Source: an uncultured bacterium (GTDB taxonomy: Bacteria; Patescibacteriota; Minisyncoccia; Phycocordibacterales; PALSA-1337). From it: a DNA stretch of 35,487 bases. Shown here one piece after another: positions 12,861-25,434 of the stretch (positions within the stretch are counted from its first letter, which is position 1; each line of letters opens with the position of its first letter). Position numbers and translations under genes: made by a program. The stretch spans positions 1 through 35,487 of the forward strand of contig CAIQIZ010000014.1 of the NCBI GenBank assembly GCA_903872035.1, read 5' to 3'. The notes beneath the pieces are model-generated. The model did no database searches, was not told where the DNA came from, and was given only the letters and a program-made list of their open reading frames with translations.

Positions 12861-14807
12861 CTATATCGTTGGCGCCGGGGCTATCACACCTCCTGTTCCG
12901 ATATATTCACCAAAAGTAAAGATGTGCTTCGGAGGGCTTACGTGGCTATTTACATATGCCGTGTAGTTAGTGATGTATGTTGGGTAATTTGAGACGAATC
13001 CGGCATCCAGACATCGGGCGAAAGTCGGAGGGTAATAGCTAAAGAGAGGATAGTCAGGGTTTATGTTCTGTTTGACGAAGATCCTTTTGGCTAGAGCGCC
13101 GGTGTCATAACTGTTCGGAATCGCGTATTTGGTTGAATCACTTACCAGGTAGCTTGAATTAATGCCTAATTGCTGCAATGTTCGATTTAGGACGATGGCG
13201 AATCCATTCGAGACAGGGCGATGACAATAACTATCGGGATTCGGAAACCTACTTGCTCCTTCCCCATTTGTTCTTGCTGATGCCCATTCTTGATCAGAAT
13301 TTGACTGATAATTGATCGTCGTGCTTGGAGGATAGAACAGGGCGTTAAGATCATTTCCAACATTTTGATATTGGACGCCTGATGTATTCACGTCACTCGC
13401 ATCGATCTTGGCAATAACTGCGGCAGTAGAAGCGGCAGTCGGAGTCGGAATAGTCGGTAATGTATATGTCATCGACGAATATGGGGTGATGGTCGGCGCC
13501 GGGGCTACTACCCCGCCAACACCAATAGTTTCACCGAAAGTGAAGATATGCTTCGGAGGACTGACATGGCTATTTACATAAGCCGTGTAGTTAGCGATGT
13601 AGGTCGGGTAATTGGAGACGAATCCCGCATCAAGACAACGGGCAAAGGTCGGGGGGTAATAGCTAAAGACAGGATAGTCCGGATTGATATTCTGTTTGAC
13701 GAAGATCCTCTTGGCAAGCGCGCCTGTATCAGGGCCGGGAATGACGTATCTGGTCGAATCGTTTACTAGGTAGCTAGCGTCGATTCCTAGCTTACTAAAT
13801 GAATTATACAAGGCTATGGCAAAATCATTTGGAATGGCCCGATGACAATAAGTGCTCGGTACAGGGAATCCTTCTCCTTTCGTCACATTCACCCAGTCTG
13901 GATCAGAATATGATGACGCAAAGTTTGCCATTGAATTTGAATTTTGGATTGCCCCGCTTGGAGGATAAAACAACAAATTTAGGTCCTTCGCTATATTTTG
14001 ATACTGAACAGCTGGCGTATTAACATCGCTAGCATCGATCTGGGCGATGATAGCAGCAGTTTGAGCAGCTGTTGGGACAGGAGCGGCCGACGGAGTCGTT
14101 GGGGTGGTCGCCACAGTCGTGTTAACCGTCGCTGGAGGCGTCGGTGTAGGTGTAGAAATTGGGCTAGGGCTAGCACCGCTCGTCGTACAATCGGCTGTTC
14201 CGAGGTAATCCGAATAAGCCGAGCTGCCACAATTGAGTTGACTGGCTGTCTGACTTAACAAAGCGGAATTGTCAGGTGTAGCGGTTGGGGTTGGACTCGG
14301 AGTAGGAGTGGCGGTCGCTAAAGTACATGTATACCCTGTCGGGCAGACAAAAGTAGTCACTTGGGATTTTGGAGTACAGGTATATCCTGTTGGACATTGG
14401 GTAGATCCGGTAGTAGCTCCGGACGCAGTTGTGCCAGTCGAAGCGGTCGCCGTACATCCATAGAGACTGTTCATTTTAGTTCTGGTAGAAACGCCGAAAT
14501 AGCCGTTGCCTGAAGTCATACCGTTCGGCTCTAGGATAGTTGAAGCATACTTCTCTTGGAATGTTGTGATCGCTTTAGCAACCGTTGCGTTGTAAGACGT
14601 AAGCGCCACTCCTGTGCTCCAGAGGCCTTCCGTGATGAGATCGTTCTTCAAGGCCGTGGCTTCAGCAGAAGCCAGGGTGGAGCCGACTTTGTGATTGGTA
14701 TTGAATGTGTAGCAAGAGATAGAAGCTTGAGCTTGTGATATGCCAGTAACCATGGCAGGTGTGATGACTAGAAGAGTTAGAGCTACATAGGTTATGGCAT
14801 TTTTCAT
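12861..14807 (-). CDS. Exported protein with peptidoglycan-binding-like domain and duplicated C-terminal module (paralog 3)
   Basis: 648 residues. The signal peptide and wall-type domain (CYTFNTNHKVGS... NSLYGC) are nearly identical to paralog 1. CPTGYTC repeats and a Pro/Thr linker follow. Then come two copies of a module of about 200 residues, each running from IDASDVNT through YCHRxxxNxFAI, TGALAKRIFVKQNINPDYP and RCLDAGFVSNYPTY to APAPTI. The DNA period is 624 bases (GGCGCC at 12871 and 13495). The duplication is in frame and still similar, hence fairly recent. It is the last gene of operon A. The module's function is unknown; its CLDAG motif appears once in each paralog. Confidence 0.78.
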   Translation of the reverse strand: MKNAITYVALTLLVITPAMVTGISQAQASISCYTFNTNHKVGSTLASAEATALKNDLITEGLWSTGVALTSYNATVAKAITTFQEKYASTILEPNGMTSGNGYFGVSTRTKMNSLYGCTATASTGTTASGATTGSTQCPTGYTCTPKSQVTTFVCPTGYTCTLATATPTPSPTPTATPDNSALLSQTASQLNCGSSAYSDYLGTADCTTSGASPSPISTPTPTPPATVNTTVATTPTTPSAAPVPTAAQTAAIIAQIDASDVNTPAVQYQNIAKDLNLLFYPPSGAIQNSNSMANFASSYSDPDWVNVTKGEGFPVPSTYCHRAIPNDFAIALYNSFSKLGIDASYLVNDSTRYVIPGPDTGALAKRIFVKQNINPDYPVFSYYPPTFARCLDAGFVSNYPTYIANYTAYVNSHVSPPKHIFTFGETIGVGGVVAPAPTITPYSSMTYTLPTIPTPTAASTAAVIAKIDASDVNTSGVQYQNVGNDLNALFYPPSTTINYQSNSDQEWASARTNGEGASRFPNPDSYCHRPVSNGFAIVLNRTLQQLGINSSYLVSDSTKYAIPNSYDTGALAKRIFVKQNINPDYPLFSYYPPTFARCLDAGFVSNYPTYITNYTAYVNSHVSPPKHIFTFGEYIGTGGVIAPAPTI

Positions 14808-14859: not shown

Positions 14860-16209
14860 TTATGGCACATATTGACACCCATTAGCCAGTGTACACGACC
14901 TAAGCGCTTTAACCGACCCGTCCGCTAATTTGATGCGTACTTTTGTGGCATTGGCATCTCCAGGATCAACTAAAGCAACGTGGAATATATTGGTACCATA
15001 TGCAGTGCCATTCTTGGCGATGCGTAATTTGGAAGGTGTCGCTGGTGGAGTGACTACGCTTTCTATAGCGATGTGTTGAATATTGGGACTAGTTGGTGTT
15101 CCTTGGTTAACTCGTAAACCAATGTCGATAAAATTATTTGAGGTTGGTGGAGCCAAGCTGAGGTCGGCTATTACAGTTTTGTCGCTACTCATCGTTATTG
15201 TGCAACTTGTACCGGATGTGCCGGATGTGGTATCGCATCCTGACCATGAATTAAAGACTGATCCAGAATCAGGAGAAGCTGACAATGTTATATTTGTATT
15301 TGCGTTTATTCCAGATTGAGAACACGTCGACCCACAACTAATGGTAGTATTCGAACCAGTAACGGTCCCGCTACCGCTTCCTGTTTTGTTGACTGTAAGT
15401 CTATAGCTTGAAGATTGAACGGAGTTCAAAGTAAATGTGGCCGTAACCGGTCTATTCGAATTCATGGTTACATTACAGGTGTCATTTTGAATGACCGGTA
15501 CGCCTGGAGGAAAATCTCCGGTCGAGACAGAATCACATCCCTGCCAACCGGTACTTAACAGGCCGGTTGATAAAAAAGACGAGCCGCTTGCGGGAGATGC
15601 TCTTAATTGAATAGTTGTGCCTTCTGGTATATTTGTTTGCGAAGTTACAGGACAAGTCGGGTCACAGCTAAGGGTAGAATTCTGGGTTCCCGTGATCGTA
15701 CCTGAACCGGTGCCAGCTTTGGAAGCAGTCAGAGAGTAGTATTTTGGCGAGACAACGGTGTAAGGTAAACTCATATTCGAACAATAGCCACCAGGGTAGA
15801 TATTCCCTGTATGCGCAGTAATGCCGACATTATGCCCTCCCTCATCTGACGCAGCTGTGAAGTATTTCGAACCGCCACTGGAACCAGAGCCATTGCCAGA
15901 AACAAAACCAGTGTTAAAAACATCAATCAATGTTGGGTTTACTACTGTGCCAGCTGCCACGCCAAAAGCAAAAGAATATTTAAAAGGCGTACCATCCCAG
16001 GTCACGGTTCCAGTAACCAGTATCTGCTCTCCAGGGGAGAAAGTGGTTTTGTTTATGGTTGCCGTCCAAGTTGCACCTCCCGAGATACCATAGTAACCCA
16101 TTTGGTTGTATGTGCAGTGTGCAGAAGCAGAAGTCTGAGCAAACGCGAATTTTGTGCCAACGACAAATAAGCAAATGGCGATCGTTACAATCGTTGCACC
16201 GAATTTCAT
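14860..16209 (-). CDS. Exported protein with two divergent InlB B-repeat-type domains
   Basis: About 449 residues from the ATG of MKFGATIVTIAICLF, chosen because it places the signal peptide at the N-terminus (cut after KFAFA); an in-frame ATG at 16248 adds 13 polar residues. The N-terminal region is beta-rich with HCTYNQMGYYG. Two B-repeat domains follow: LTASKAGTGSGTITG...CDPTCP...FSTGW-like, and LTVNKTGSGSGTVTG...CGSTCS...FNSWSGCDT...SCTITMSSDK. The C-terminus is another small beta domain. Such repeats occur in surface adhesins. It lies in operon A and has no equivalent in operon B. Confidence 0.78.
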   Translation of the reverse strand: MKFGATIVTIAICLFVVGTKFAFAQTSASAHCTYNQMGYYGISGGATWTATINKTTFSPGEQILVTGTVTWDGTPFKYSFAFGVAAGTVVNPTLIDVFNTGFVSGNGSGSSGGSKYFTAASDEGGHNVGITAHTGNIYPGGYCSNMSLPYTVVSPKYYSLTASKAGTGSGTITGTQNSTLSCDPTCPVTSQTNIPEGTTIQLRASPASGSSFLSTGLLSTGWQGCDSVSTGDFPPGVPVIQNDTCNVTMNSNRPVTATFTLNSVQSSSYRLTVNKTGSGSGTVTGSNTTISCGSTCSQSGINANTNITLSASPDSGSVFNSWSGCDTTSGTSGTSCTITMSSDKTVIADLSLAPPTSNNFIDIGLRVNQGTPTSPNIQHIAIESVVTPPATPSKLRIAKNGTAYGTNIFHVALVDPGDANATKVRIKLADGSVKALRSCTLANGCQYVP

Positions 16210-16258
16210 GCTTGCTGATGAGTTATTTATTTCACGACGAAATAACATATGTTTCTGA

Positions 16259-22587: not shown

Positions 22588-22596
22588 AAAAAGAAA

Positions 22597-22624
22597 AGCC
22601 ACGCCCCTTTTAGAGAGCGCGGCT
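22597..22624 (-). terminator. Terminator at the end of the IS110-like RNA unit
   Basis: Minus-strand stem AGCCGCGC/GCGTGGCT with a 12-base loop is followed by TTTTCTTTTT. It lies just past the last structured unit, so it would end transcription coming from the IS110-like gene. Confidence 0.75.
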
Positions 22625-22917
22625 ATGTTTTGGAAGTGAGGCATTCCATCAATCGCTGGGACTAGGAAGCATCCCGCTCGTCGCCTCTTCCCCAAATTTT
22701 GTGGCGCAAGCCATCAAGCGCAATAATTGCACTGGTCCGTTCGCGCCACTGGTCGCTTTCGCAACCAAAAATTCAAAGAACAAAATTACAGAGGGGAATC
22801 CTTATCCACGCCATTGACGTAATCAATGTGCACAGGTCTCATCTCCCCTCTTTCCGATTTTGAAATAATTAAACTTCAATTCCGGAAATAGGGGGCGAGA
22901 GAATTGCTTCTCTCGCC
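22625..22917 (-). ncRNA. Structured RNA array, 3' part (after the IS110-like gene)
   Basis: No protein gene is credible here. Read on the minus strand: a 10-bp hairpin with a GCAA tetraloop (22894-22917), stem TTTCCG/CGGAAA (22851-22888), long-loop stem AGAGGGGA/TCCCCTCT (22790-22851, loop about 46), linker, hairpin GGTTGC-GAAA-GCGACC (22751-22766), long-loop stem GTGGCGC/GCGCCAC (22701-22749, loop 35), an AAAATTT linker, and long-loop stem GGAAG..AGGC/GCCTCTTCC (22632-22691, loop 40). The terminator follows. The GAAA and GCAA loops are GNRA only on this strand, which indicates that RNA is made from the same strand as the IS110-like gene. Confidence 0.65.
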
Positions 22918-22987
22918 TGTGTGATAATAGCATTTACGCCTCTTTGCAGAAGCATGACAACCCTCATCACACCTTTCGCCGCCTCGC

Positions 22988-24448
22988 TCACTCTTTCGAG
23001 CTCGCTTCAGCGGCAGATCTTTCCAACTTCCACCACTCGCGGTAGAGCCACTCGGCGAAACGAGTCAATGTGCGCCAACTACCCATTCGGTGGATGTGCT
23101 GCTTGGTATACTGCAGGAATCTTTTCTCCTTACCTTCAACCATGATCTTCACCATGACAGGTTCAGGATGTTTAGCTCTGGCCCGCTTTTTGGCCTCGAT
23201 GAGATAAGCACCCCAGCGGGTCTTATCTCCCTGACGGTTGAATTGCTCCGCGAGGTTCCAAAAGGCCTGGCGACCATTCTCCTCATCCCAATTCGCTGTT
23301 TCACCGCTACGCCGTTTGGGAAATTGCTTATCTGGCGGTAACGGATTGCCTTTCTTGTCTTTCAACTTGACATGGAGTCCGTTGTAAGCGACGAACTTCG
23401 AGGCCTTGGGGAATCGCCGAATATCGACGACTGCGTAAATGAGACGAGCGGCAATACGAGGTCCCAGACCGGGAATGCCCTCGAACAGATTCTTGTAGAC
23501 ATCGAGTGATTCCACGAGCTTGGTGAGATCCTTCAACCGTTTAGCTTGTTCGGTCTCCAAAGCTACAAGGACCACATCCGTAGCCTTGCGCTTCAGAAAC
23601 TCCTTTTCGATCGAGCCTTCGGGGAAGCCACCGGTTTCACTGCAGAAGGTATCGCCGATATGGTGCTGGAAGAGGCGCTGATTGCAAGCGATCCTTGCTT
23701 TCATGGCATCTTTCCATTCACGATATAGGTTACGCAAGCGAATGATTCTGCGATCGCGAACATGCGTAGCATAGAAGTCTCCACGACATTCCTCCGCCAA
23801 ACGAATGAGGAGCACCGGGTCGTCGTCCTTCGACGCCGCTCCACGATAATCCTTGAGCTTGAATGGTGGGATACGAATGACAGAACCATTCATTTCCGAA
23901 AGCTTTCGGCTCAAGGCATAGGCGAAGTAATCGCCGGAACCGCCCAGAGTCATAACCACCATGTCGTATAGTTGTAGACCGATCCAGTCCGTTGGGACCT
24001 TTTCGGCCACTTCGACGAGCGTTACGATAGGGGACGCACCCTTCTTGCCTTTCTTGGTTTCATGACGGCTCTGCGATGGATGGCGCTCCACAAGAACGTC
24101 CTCGTCCTTGGCAGCGCGGAAGATGACCTGGTGCGCGATCATACCGGAAATATCTTCTCCCGGTTTGACAACCCTCCACTTCACCGCGCACTGACCCTTG
24201 AGGAAGTCCAGCTCATCTTGTTCACTTTCGAGCTTGAAGCGCTGAATAGCGTTACTACCGGCTTCTTTGATAGCTATCAATGTCGGCCGAGCCTCCTGAT
24301 CTTTCTTCTGCTTGATGCGGTGCGAGATGCCGATGATGCGACCCTGACCCGGACTCCACTCATTGATCGCTTTAACCGTCTTCAACTCTCGGCCACCAAA
24401 CATTTCTGCAATAATGGCCCCGACTTCATCTGTTTTTTCCGTCTTCAT
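22988..24448 (-). CDS. Divergent IS110-like transposase/recombinase (Transposase_20 domain)
   Basis: 486 residues from MKTEKTDEVG, chosen because AGAAAGG lies 6 bases upstream of this ATG and longer frames run into structured RNA. The C-terminal half fits Transposase_20: LFEGIPGLGPRIAARLI (321-337), VDIRRFPKASKFVAYNGLHV, RRSGETANWDEENGRQAFWN with the likely nucleophile S381. The N-terminal half resembles the RuvC-like DEDD domain but appears degenerate: TLIAIK where IS110 has GxD, VVMTLGGSG where VVxE is expected, SKDDDP near the KTDxxDA position. It is longer than typical IS110 proteins (300-400), with an insertion around 110-145. IS110 proteins are guided by bridge RNAs, and structured RNA lies on both sides here. 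Confidence 0.75.
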   Translation of the reverse strand: MKTEKTDEVGAIIAEMFGGRELKTVKAINEWSPGQGRIIGISHRIKQKKDQEARPTLIAIKEAGSNAIQRFKLESEQDELDFLKGQCAVKWRVVKPGEDISGMIAHQVIFRAAKDEDVLVERHPSQSRHETKKGKKGASPIVTLVEVAEKVPTDWIGLQLYDMVVMTLGGSGDYFAYALSRKLSEMNGSVIRIPPFKLKDYRGAASKDDDPVLLIRLAEECRGDFYATHVRDRRIIRLRNLYREWKDAMKARIACNQRLFQHHIGDTFCSETGGFPEGSIEKEFLKRKATDVVLVALETEQAKRLKDLTKLVESLDVYKNLFEGIPGLGPRIAARLIYAVVDIRRFPKASKFVAYNGLHVKLKDKKGNPLPPDKQFPKRRSGETANWDEENGRQAFWNLAEQFNRQGDKTRWGAYLIEAKKRARAKHPEPVMVKIMVEGKEKRFLQYTKQHIHRMGSWRTLTRFAEWLYREWWKLERSAAEASSKE

Positions 24449-24578
24449 CACTAACCTTTCTATTTTAGGACTAGGCGTCCTGTTTTTTGTTGCTTCGCTC
24501 CGACGAATTTCGGAACAAAGTTTGGGAATGTAGGAATTCAGACTCTCATTGAAGAGAATCAGCGTCATCACATTCCCT
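24449..24578 (-). other. Leader between the RNA array and the IS110-like start codon
   Basis: Contains a small hairpin AGGAC-GCCTA-GTCCT (24467-24481) and the Shine-Dalgarno AGAAAGG (24455-24461). In-frame GTG at 24571 would extend the protein by 41 residues, but they do not resemble the family. Confidence 0.4.
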
Positions 24579-25368
24579 CCTCTTTTCAGAGGAAATTTTC
24601 GGGGCAGGCTCGCATTCTCCCTGTTTCCAGGAAAGTTTGTTTTTCGCCCCGATCCTCTTTTCAGAGGAAAACTTGGTATGGATAACGGCTTCCCCGCTCA
24701 AATTGAGCATCAAGCGCAACACCCATACCATCCGCTTTCGCGGAAATTCTGCGAGCATGTTGATCTACTCTATAAAGAATGATCCCGCTCGCTCGCAACG
24801 GCTTTCGCCGAAATTTTATTGTAAAGAGCACTGTGGCAACGCTCTACTCTTCCTTTCGGAAACGTGGTGTAACGCCACAGAGAGAATCATTTCTGACCCT
24901 CTTCACGAAATACTTTCCGAGGTCTACCCTCGGAAAACATATCATGAAGAGGGGGTGAGTATTGGTAGTTTCGTCAAGATAACACGCGTTTACACACTCA
25001 CCCTTCCGCCGATAACAGGCAACGATGAGATCGCGCTTCGCACGTGACTCTACGCCTATGTATCGACGAGATTTTGGAGAAGAAATGGGAGTCTCGCATT
25101 TTAAGCAGTCCGTCATACTCTTCTCCAAGGCTTTCGCCTAAATTTCGCGGCAAAGGAGCGGGGTCGCCATAATCGGGCACCTAATTCTTCTTGCCGCGGT
25201 CCCTACTTTCGTTCGGGACGAAATTTCGTGGTGCATCAACTTTGACGCCTAAATAGCATTCCTTGTTTCACACCACGTGTCCTTATGGACAAAATTCAAA
25301 GAACGGTGCAGAGCAGGGCACCAGTCTCTAGCAAAATATTGCCGAAATGCTCCTTTCGCTCTGCACCG
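24579..25368 (-). ncRNA. Structured RNA array, 5' part (before the IS110-like gene)
   Basis: About 790 bases without a credible gene. Minus-strand order of long-loop stems: 25304-25368 (11 bp, loop 43), 25227-25277 (7 bp, loop 37), 25146-25198 (8 bp, loop 37), 25074-25128 (9 bp, loop 37), 24953-25003 (8 bp, loop 35), a pseudoknot-capable unit 24825-24880, 24750-24797 (7 bp, loop 34), 24674-24730 (8 bp, loop 41), 24599-24652 (7 bp, loop 40). Between them are linkers such as AAATTT and short hairpins. Hairpins at 25199, 25128, 24850, 24799, 24732, 24654, 24620 and 24579 carry GAAA tetraloops. Stem sequences differ from unit to unit while the layout persists, which suggests selection on RNA structure. 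Confidence 0.7.
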
Positions 25369-25380
25369 AAATCTAAAATT

Positions 25381-25409
25381 ACGCTAGCATTTCTTTTCCA
25401 TCGTGTCAA
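25381..25409 (-). promoter_or_regulatory. Promoter of the RNA array / IS110-like unit
   Basis: Minus strand: -35 TTGACA (25404-25409, perfect), 17-base spacer ending TGC, -10 TAGCGT (25381-25386), i.e. an extended -10. Transcription would start at about 25374, a few bases before the first array stem. Confidence 0.65.
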
Positions 25410-25434
25410 CCCACTCCCGCCTCCATAGAAAAGT

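What the first reader, a model, noticed from the sequence alone, without database searches (positions are those of the whole stretch)
22590..25410. Tandem array of GNRA-capped structured RNA units on both sides of an IS110-like gene
Seen: about eleven long-loop stems (6-11 bp, loops mostly 34-46 nt) joined by AAATTT-like linkers and short hairpins. At least eight of the upstream hairpins and one of the downstream ones carry GAAA loops, and another downstream hairpin carries GCAA. These loops are GNRA only on the strand of the IS110-like gene. Stem sequences vary while geometry is conserved. Known: IS110 proteins use a bridge RNA with two programmable loops in a non-coding end. Inference: this could be a multi-loop relative, in which an array of guide-like loops serves one protein. 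That would be a new RNA-protein system.
Basis: partly seen in the sequence, partly recalled or inferred. Interest (0 to 1): 0.95.

Follow-up and report, generated by a model that had tools for sequence, protein, structure and literature searches.

The report
Stem-loop TIGR-Tas guide-RNA array
A tiny parasitic-type bacterium carries a known kind of RNA-guided system (TIGR-Tas): 15 small RNA hairpins, each holding two 9-letter guides, surround the gene for one guide-binding protein whose DNA-cutting site looks dead; what the guides aim at is still unknown.

Summary
The minus strand carries 15 long-loop stems (11 upstream, 4 downstream) around one gene, about ten times more perfect stems than shuffled DNA upstream. 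Every unit parses as stem, G(A/T), 9 nt, inner hairpin, 9 nt, T, stem: the dual-spacer, box C/D-like unit of a TIGR stem-loop array. The protein scores over NCBI's cut-off for TIGR-Tas (125.2 vs 100 bits), far under the IS110 cut-off (47.9 vs 140), and its predicted fold is closest to solved TasR. Its RuvC-like domain lacks most catalytic acids in all relatives. Faure et al. 2025 (PMC12045711) describe this clade: CPR TasR with inactive RuvC and stem arrays. I add details not found in that paper's main text: a shared promoter; boxA-like antitermination sites (35 on the array strand, 2 antisense); a fixed dnaE-thrS location with empty sites in relatives; stems conserved between species while the 9-nt spacers are near random. 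No convincing targets were found in the own genome, 23S rRNA or (four patterns) viral contigs.

The parts
25381..25409 (-). Promoter: TTGACA, 17 nt, TAGCGT with TG(C) before it (extended -10), just upstream of unit 1
   Evidence: TTGAC[AT] ahead of the array in 10 of 12 loci, mostly followed 17 nt on by a -10-like hexamer; the consensus scan alone did not list it
25304..25368 (-). Unit 1, spacers AAGGAGCAT / CTGGTGCCC
25227..25277 (-). Unit 2, spacers AACAAGGAA / CAAAGTTGA
25146..25198 (-). Unit 3, spacers AGAATTAGG / CCCCGCTCC
25074..25128 (-). Unit 4, spacers ATGACGGAC / GACTCCCAT
25015..25059 (-). Unit 5, spacers AGAGTCACG / TCTCATCGT; outer helix extends to 25069-25006; the only unit whose spacers are kept in L016 (17 of 18 bases)
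24953..25003 (-). Unit 6, spacers GTAAACGCG / AACTACCAA
   Evidence: parsed by eye
24831..24880 (-). Unit 7, spacers TACACCACG / GTAGAGCGT
24750..24797 (-). Unit 8, spacers GCGGGATCA / AGATCAACA
24674..24730 (-). Unit 9, spacers TGCGCTTGA / GGAAGCCGT
24599..24652 (-). Unit 10, spacers AAAACAAAC / ATGCGAGCC
24524..24577 (-). Unit 11, spacers TGACGCTGA / CTGAATTCC
22991..24448 (-). tas gene, 486 aa, TasR-like with degenerate RuvC fold (residues about 35-228), coiled coil and Nop-like domain (about 229-481)
   Evidence: NF052498 TIGR_Tas_endo 125.2 bits over cut-off 100; fold closest to TasR 9mty, Z 18.9
22919..22972 (-). Unit 12, spacers GGGTTGTCA / AAATGCTAT
22790..22851 (-). Unit 13, spacers TGAGACCTG / GGATAAGGA
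22701..22749 (-). Unit 14, spacers ACGGACCAG / TTGATGGCT
22637..22688 (-). Unit 15, spacers CGAGCGGGA / TTGATGGAA
   Evidence: parsed by eye
22597..22624 (-). Rho-independent terminator-like hairpin plus T tail after the last unit
   Evidence: 11 pairs, TTTCTTTTTA; 6 such sites found in the region against 3.5 in shuffles
25287..25304 (-). boxA-like site GTTCTTTGAATTTTG
24811..24830 (-). boxA-like site TGCTCTTTACAATAAAATTT
22765..22781 (-). boxA-like site GTTCTTTGAATTTTT
24897..24953 (-). Long hairpin between units 6 and 7, ends conserved in four congeners; possible processing site, not a spacer unit
   Evidence: role is inference

Best explanation
A stem-loop TIGR-Tas system in the chromosome of a CPR (probably Taylorbacteria) bacterium. 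One transcript, started at a promoter near 25409 and ended near 22600, carries 11 guide units, the tas message and 4 more units. boxA-like sites probably let RNA polymerase read through this long, structured RNA. The transcript is cut between units by a host RNase into single stem-loops. A dimer of the Tas protein binds each through box C/D-like motifs at both ends of the two 9-nt spacers. Spacers A and B then pair with opposite strands of one 18-bp DNA site. Because the RuvC-like domain has lost most of its catalytic acids, the complex most likely binds and blocks, marks or bends DNA rather than cutting it; likely targets are changing sequences such as mobile elements. Shown here by computation: anatomy, family, fold, missing residues, conservation pattern. 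Known from studied relatives: processing, dimer, two-strand pairing. Inferred: boxA role, binding without cutting, target kind.
For: NCBIfam NF052498 TIGR_Tas_endo 125.2 bits, cut-off 100; all 10 aligned sequences match it. Profile search of solved structures: TasR 9mty E 5.4e-21, IS621 E 2.8e-5, TasH E 7e-4. Model (mean pLDDT 82.4): best match TasR Z 18.9 over residues 37-479; IS621 17.3; TasH about 16 over the C-terminal part; RuvC about 10 over 35-228; box C/D Nop56/58 7.7 over 229-481. All 15 units fit the two-9-nt-spacer grammar; in relatives the motif at the outer and inner stem changes together (GA/GT at both in most loci, TA at both in L020), as reported for TIGR box motifs. Stem arrays with an inactive-RuvC CPR TasR clade are published. 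Catalytic positions: no acid at the first strand end, none at GGSG, K207 where IS110 has its third acid, only D210 kept.
Against: No expression or binding data. Tas residues were not mapped residue by residue onto the TasR active site; the 'dead' call rests on alignment to IS110 and on conservation. No target found: no exact 18-bp self match, best near-match 2 mismatches in a glycosyltransferase-like gene; 23S negative; viral matches at chance level. 16S is not in the assembly. [quoted passage not shown]
Confidence: 0.82

Rival explanations
1. IS110-type mobile element with a multi-loop bridge RNA: a recombinase that uses the array of loops to choose targets and donors, or a DNA invertase.
For: Transposase_20 Pfam match, IS110 fold match Z 17.3; each unit resembles one loop of a bridge RNA.
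Against: Below the IS110 curated cut-off (47.9 vs 140); IS110 acids mostly absent; no hit to PF01548 in the own genome; single copy; same dnaE-thrS locus in congeners and in another family, not scattered copies.
Confidence: 0.04
2. A snoRNA-like system guiding an RNA-modifying or RNA-binding complex on ribosomal or other host RNA, as the published authors speculate for the ancestry of this clade.
For: Nop-like domain, dead RuvC fold and box C/D-like motifs match the box C/D architecture.
Against: 23S rRNA: 0 exact antisense 9-mers, and 9 with up to one mismatch against 9 on the control strand. Spacers differ between congeners, whereas rRNA guides should be kept. 16S and mRNAs not tested.
Confidence: 0.08
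3. The stems and linkers are the functional part and the loops are unconstrained filler (for example a sponge or structured leader).
For: Stems and linkers are conserved between species, loops are not.
Against: Spacer length fixed at 9 nt on both sides in nearly all parsed units of most loci, with motifs at fixed positions; homology to systems shown to use these spacers.
Confidence: 0.05

Closest known systems
TIGR-TasR with stem-loop array, CPR clade with inactive RuvC (Faure et al. 2025, PMC12045711)
   Same: Tas family protein, RuvC-like fold without most catalytic acids, tandem stem-loops with two 9-nt spacers (reported range 8-12), covarying box motifs, CPR host, terminator at the end
   Different: No difference established; promoter, boxA-like sites, fixed genomic site and stem/spacer evolution are added here; large Nop insertions not checked
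TIGR-TasA stem-loop array of the Peromyscus gut contig (same paper)
   Same: 13 stem-loop units in subarrays, dual spacers
   Different: TasA there lacks a nuclease domain; here a RuvC-like domain is present
IS110/IS621 recombinase and bridge RNA (PMC11208160)
   Same: Related fold and RNA-binding domain; internal loops with two guides pairing opposite strands
   Different: IS110 has one two-loop RNA, catalytic acids and mobility; here 15 one-loop units, acids mostly lost, fixed locus
Box C/D snoRNP (Nop56/58)
   Same: Nop-like domain and box C/D-like guide layout
   Different: No rRNA complementarity found in 23S

Membership tests
TIGR-Tas, stem-loop array type | Tas protein with Nop-type RNA-binding domain | tested here: met
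   NF052498 over cut-off; fold match to TasR and TasH, weaker to Nop56/58
TIGR-Tas, stem-loop array type | Tandem stem-loops, each with two 8-12 nt spacers | tested here: met
   15 of 15 units with 9 + 9 nt; parse made partly by eye
[quoted passage not shown]
CPR TasR clade with inactive RuvC | RuvC fold lacking catalytic residues | tested here: met
   Fold Z about 10 to RuvC; three of four IS110-type acid positions not acidic; not mapped directly on TasR
[quoted passage not shown]
   Not measured against a reference Nop domain
TIGR-Tas | Array transcribed and processed to single units bound by Tas | not testable with these tools
   Needs RNA sequencing of a pull-down
TIGR-Tas | Spacers pair with opposite strands of one DNA target | not testable with these tools
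   No natural target found
IS110 transposon with bridge RNA | Catalytic DEDD residues and IS110 family score | tested here: not met
   47.9 bits vs cut-off 140; acids mostly missing
IS110 transposon with bridge RNA | Mobile copies with element ends | tested here: inconclusive
   One copy in the genome at a site shared with relatives; ends not searched systematically

The most novel reading that the evidence does not exclude
The array is a set of fixed addresses whose 9-nt guides are replaced in place: scaffold (stems, linkers) stays while single spacers are swapped whole, possibly by recombination between units, giving guide turnover without CRISPR-type adaptation genes. In L022 two units have an identical scaffold (0 of 29 changes) and identical spacer A but all nine bases of spacer B different.
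Probability: 0.3. Interest if true: 0.75.

Novelty: new member of a known kind. Interest (0 to 1): 0.5.

Why it matters
The origin and turnover of TIGR spacers and their natural targets are stated open questions. A set of congeners with the same locus, collinear stems and changed spacers, plus empty sites, gives a concrete setting to test them. The boxA-like sites suggest a simple answer to how such long structured guide RNAs are transcribed, as proposed for some CRISPR arrays (PMC7862264).

Tried and rejected
Rfam: only two tRNAs. PADLOC: no hit. rRNA-guide idea: 23S negative, 16S not found in the assembly. Viral targets: U5 in both orders 0 and 1 hit, U13 1, U14 3; about one expected by chance by my own rough estimate. 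Relatives in viral contigs: none. G-U-tolerant stem count: near chance, not used. The U5 near match in the own genome (2 mismatches) lies in a glycosyltransferase-like gene and was judged chance.

Full report
WHAT IS THERE. The minus strand of 22597-25409 is one ordered unit: a promoter-like site (TTGACA, 17 nt, TAGCGT preceded by TGC), 11 stem-loops, the 486-codon gene at 22991-24448, 4 more stem-loops and a terminator-like hairpin. Counting only perfect Watson-Crick stems of 7 bp or more with loops of 30-50 nt, the upstream part has 10 against 1.06 expected and the downstream part 3 against 0.45. GNRA-capped hairpins lie on the array strand (12 vs 2).

UNIT GRAMMAR. Each unit reads stem, G then A or T, nine variable bases, a short inner hairpin, nine variable bases, T, stem. 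All 15 fit; units 5, 6 and 15 were placed by eye, the others also by script. In 11 relatives fetched by protein similarity the same grammar recurs in most; L024 parsed poorly and L023 has shorter inner parts. The two bases at the outer stem and at the inner hairpin agree within a locus: GA/GT in most, TA in L020. The script favoured G(A/T) at the outer position but not at the inner one, and did not favour TA.

PROTEIN. NCBIfam gives TIGR_Tas_endo over its cut-off and IS110 well under it. A profile of ten sequences finds TasR 9mty first; the AlphaFold2 model matches TasR best, with IS621 close behind, a RuvC-like N-terminal domain and a Nop-like C-terminal half. Against IS110 proteins of the same order, the K-x-D-x-x-D-A motif aligns so that only the last acid (D210) remains and K207 takes the place of the third; the first strand end (GIxHR) and the GGSG motif hold no conserved acid. 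I read this as catalytically dead.

KNOWN KIND. Faure et al. (PMC12045711) describe Tas proteins with stem-loop arrays and a CPR clade of TasR with an inactive RuvC and stem arrays. This is a member of that kind, not a new system.

WHAT IS ADDED. (a) boxA-like GYTCTTT sites: 35 on the array strand, 2 on the other, 3.0 expected in 12 loci; in the 11 loci re-examined 30 lie outside unit loops. The paper's main text does not mention boxA or antitermination; its supplements were not read. boxA upstream of CRISPR arrays is reported. (b) Site: thrS, dnaE or both flank the locus in the congeners and in L019 of another family; four congeners without tas have dnaE and thrS only 35-121 bp apart. Only 5 of 34 genomes of the genus carry tas. 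(c) Evolution: between window and L016, units are collinear with stems 82% identical over 11 pairs, while spacers outside unit 5 are 22% (A) and 39% (B) identical against 26% expected at random; four-fold degenerate sites of tas, dnaE and thrS are 39-48% identical. Pooled, 55 of 180 spacer bases against about 177 of 398 sites agree; a normal approximation by hand gives z about 3.2. The sites are near saturation and most pairs were found through their stems, so this shows lack of constraint more surely than faster-than-neutral change. Stem changes keep pairing: 17 double, 11 single, 0 broken of 178. (d) In L022 repeated blocks keep scaffold and linkers but differ in spacers, once in all nine bases of B with A unchanged; one such case only.

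TARGETS. No exact 18-bp self target, best near match 2 mismatches; 23S negative; viral hits at chance level. The target kind therefore stays inference: spacers that are not kept between species suggest changing targets, and unit 5, kept at 17 of 18 bases, would be the first to follow.

Noticed in passing
window 24897-24953 (-): Long hairpin between units 6 and 7 whose ends (CCTCTTCA...GAAGAGG) are conserved in four congeners while its middle varies; could be a processing site.
   Followed up: partly
window 25015-25059 (-) and L016 8648-8696: Unit 5 is the only unit with both spacers kept between the two closest species, although its stem differs.
   Followed up: partly
L022 (G120), arrays on both sides of its tas gene: About five stem types recur in cyclic order over some 20 units with near-identical linkers, as if blocks had been duplicated.
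   Followed up: partly
G000 assembly, C21: 23S rRNA matches come in several pieces and no 16S was found, although completeness is given as 100.
   Followed up: no
window 12861-14807 and 14860-16248 (-): Two long ORFs (648 and 462 aa) without a Pfam match at E 1e-8.
   Followed up: no
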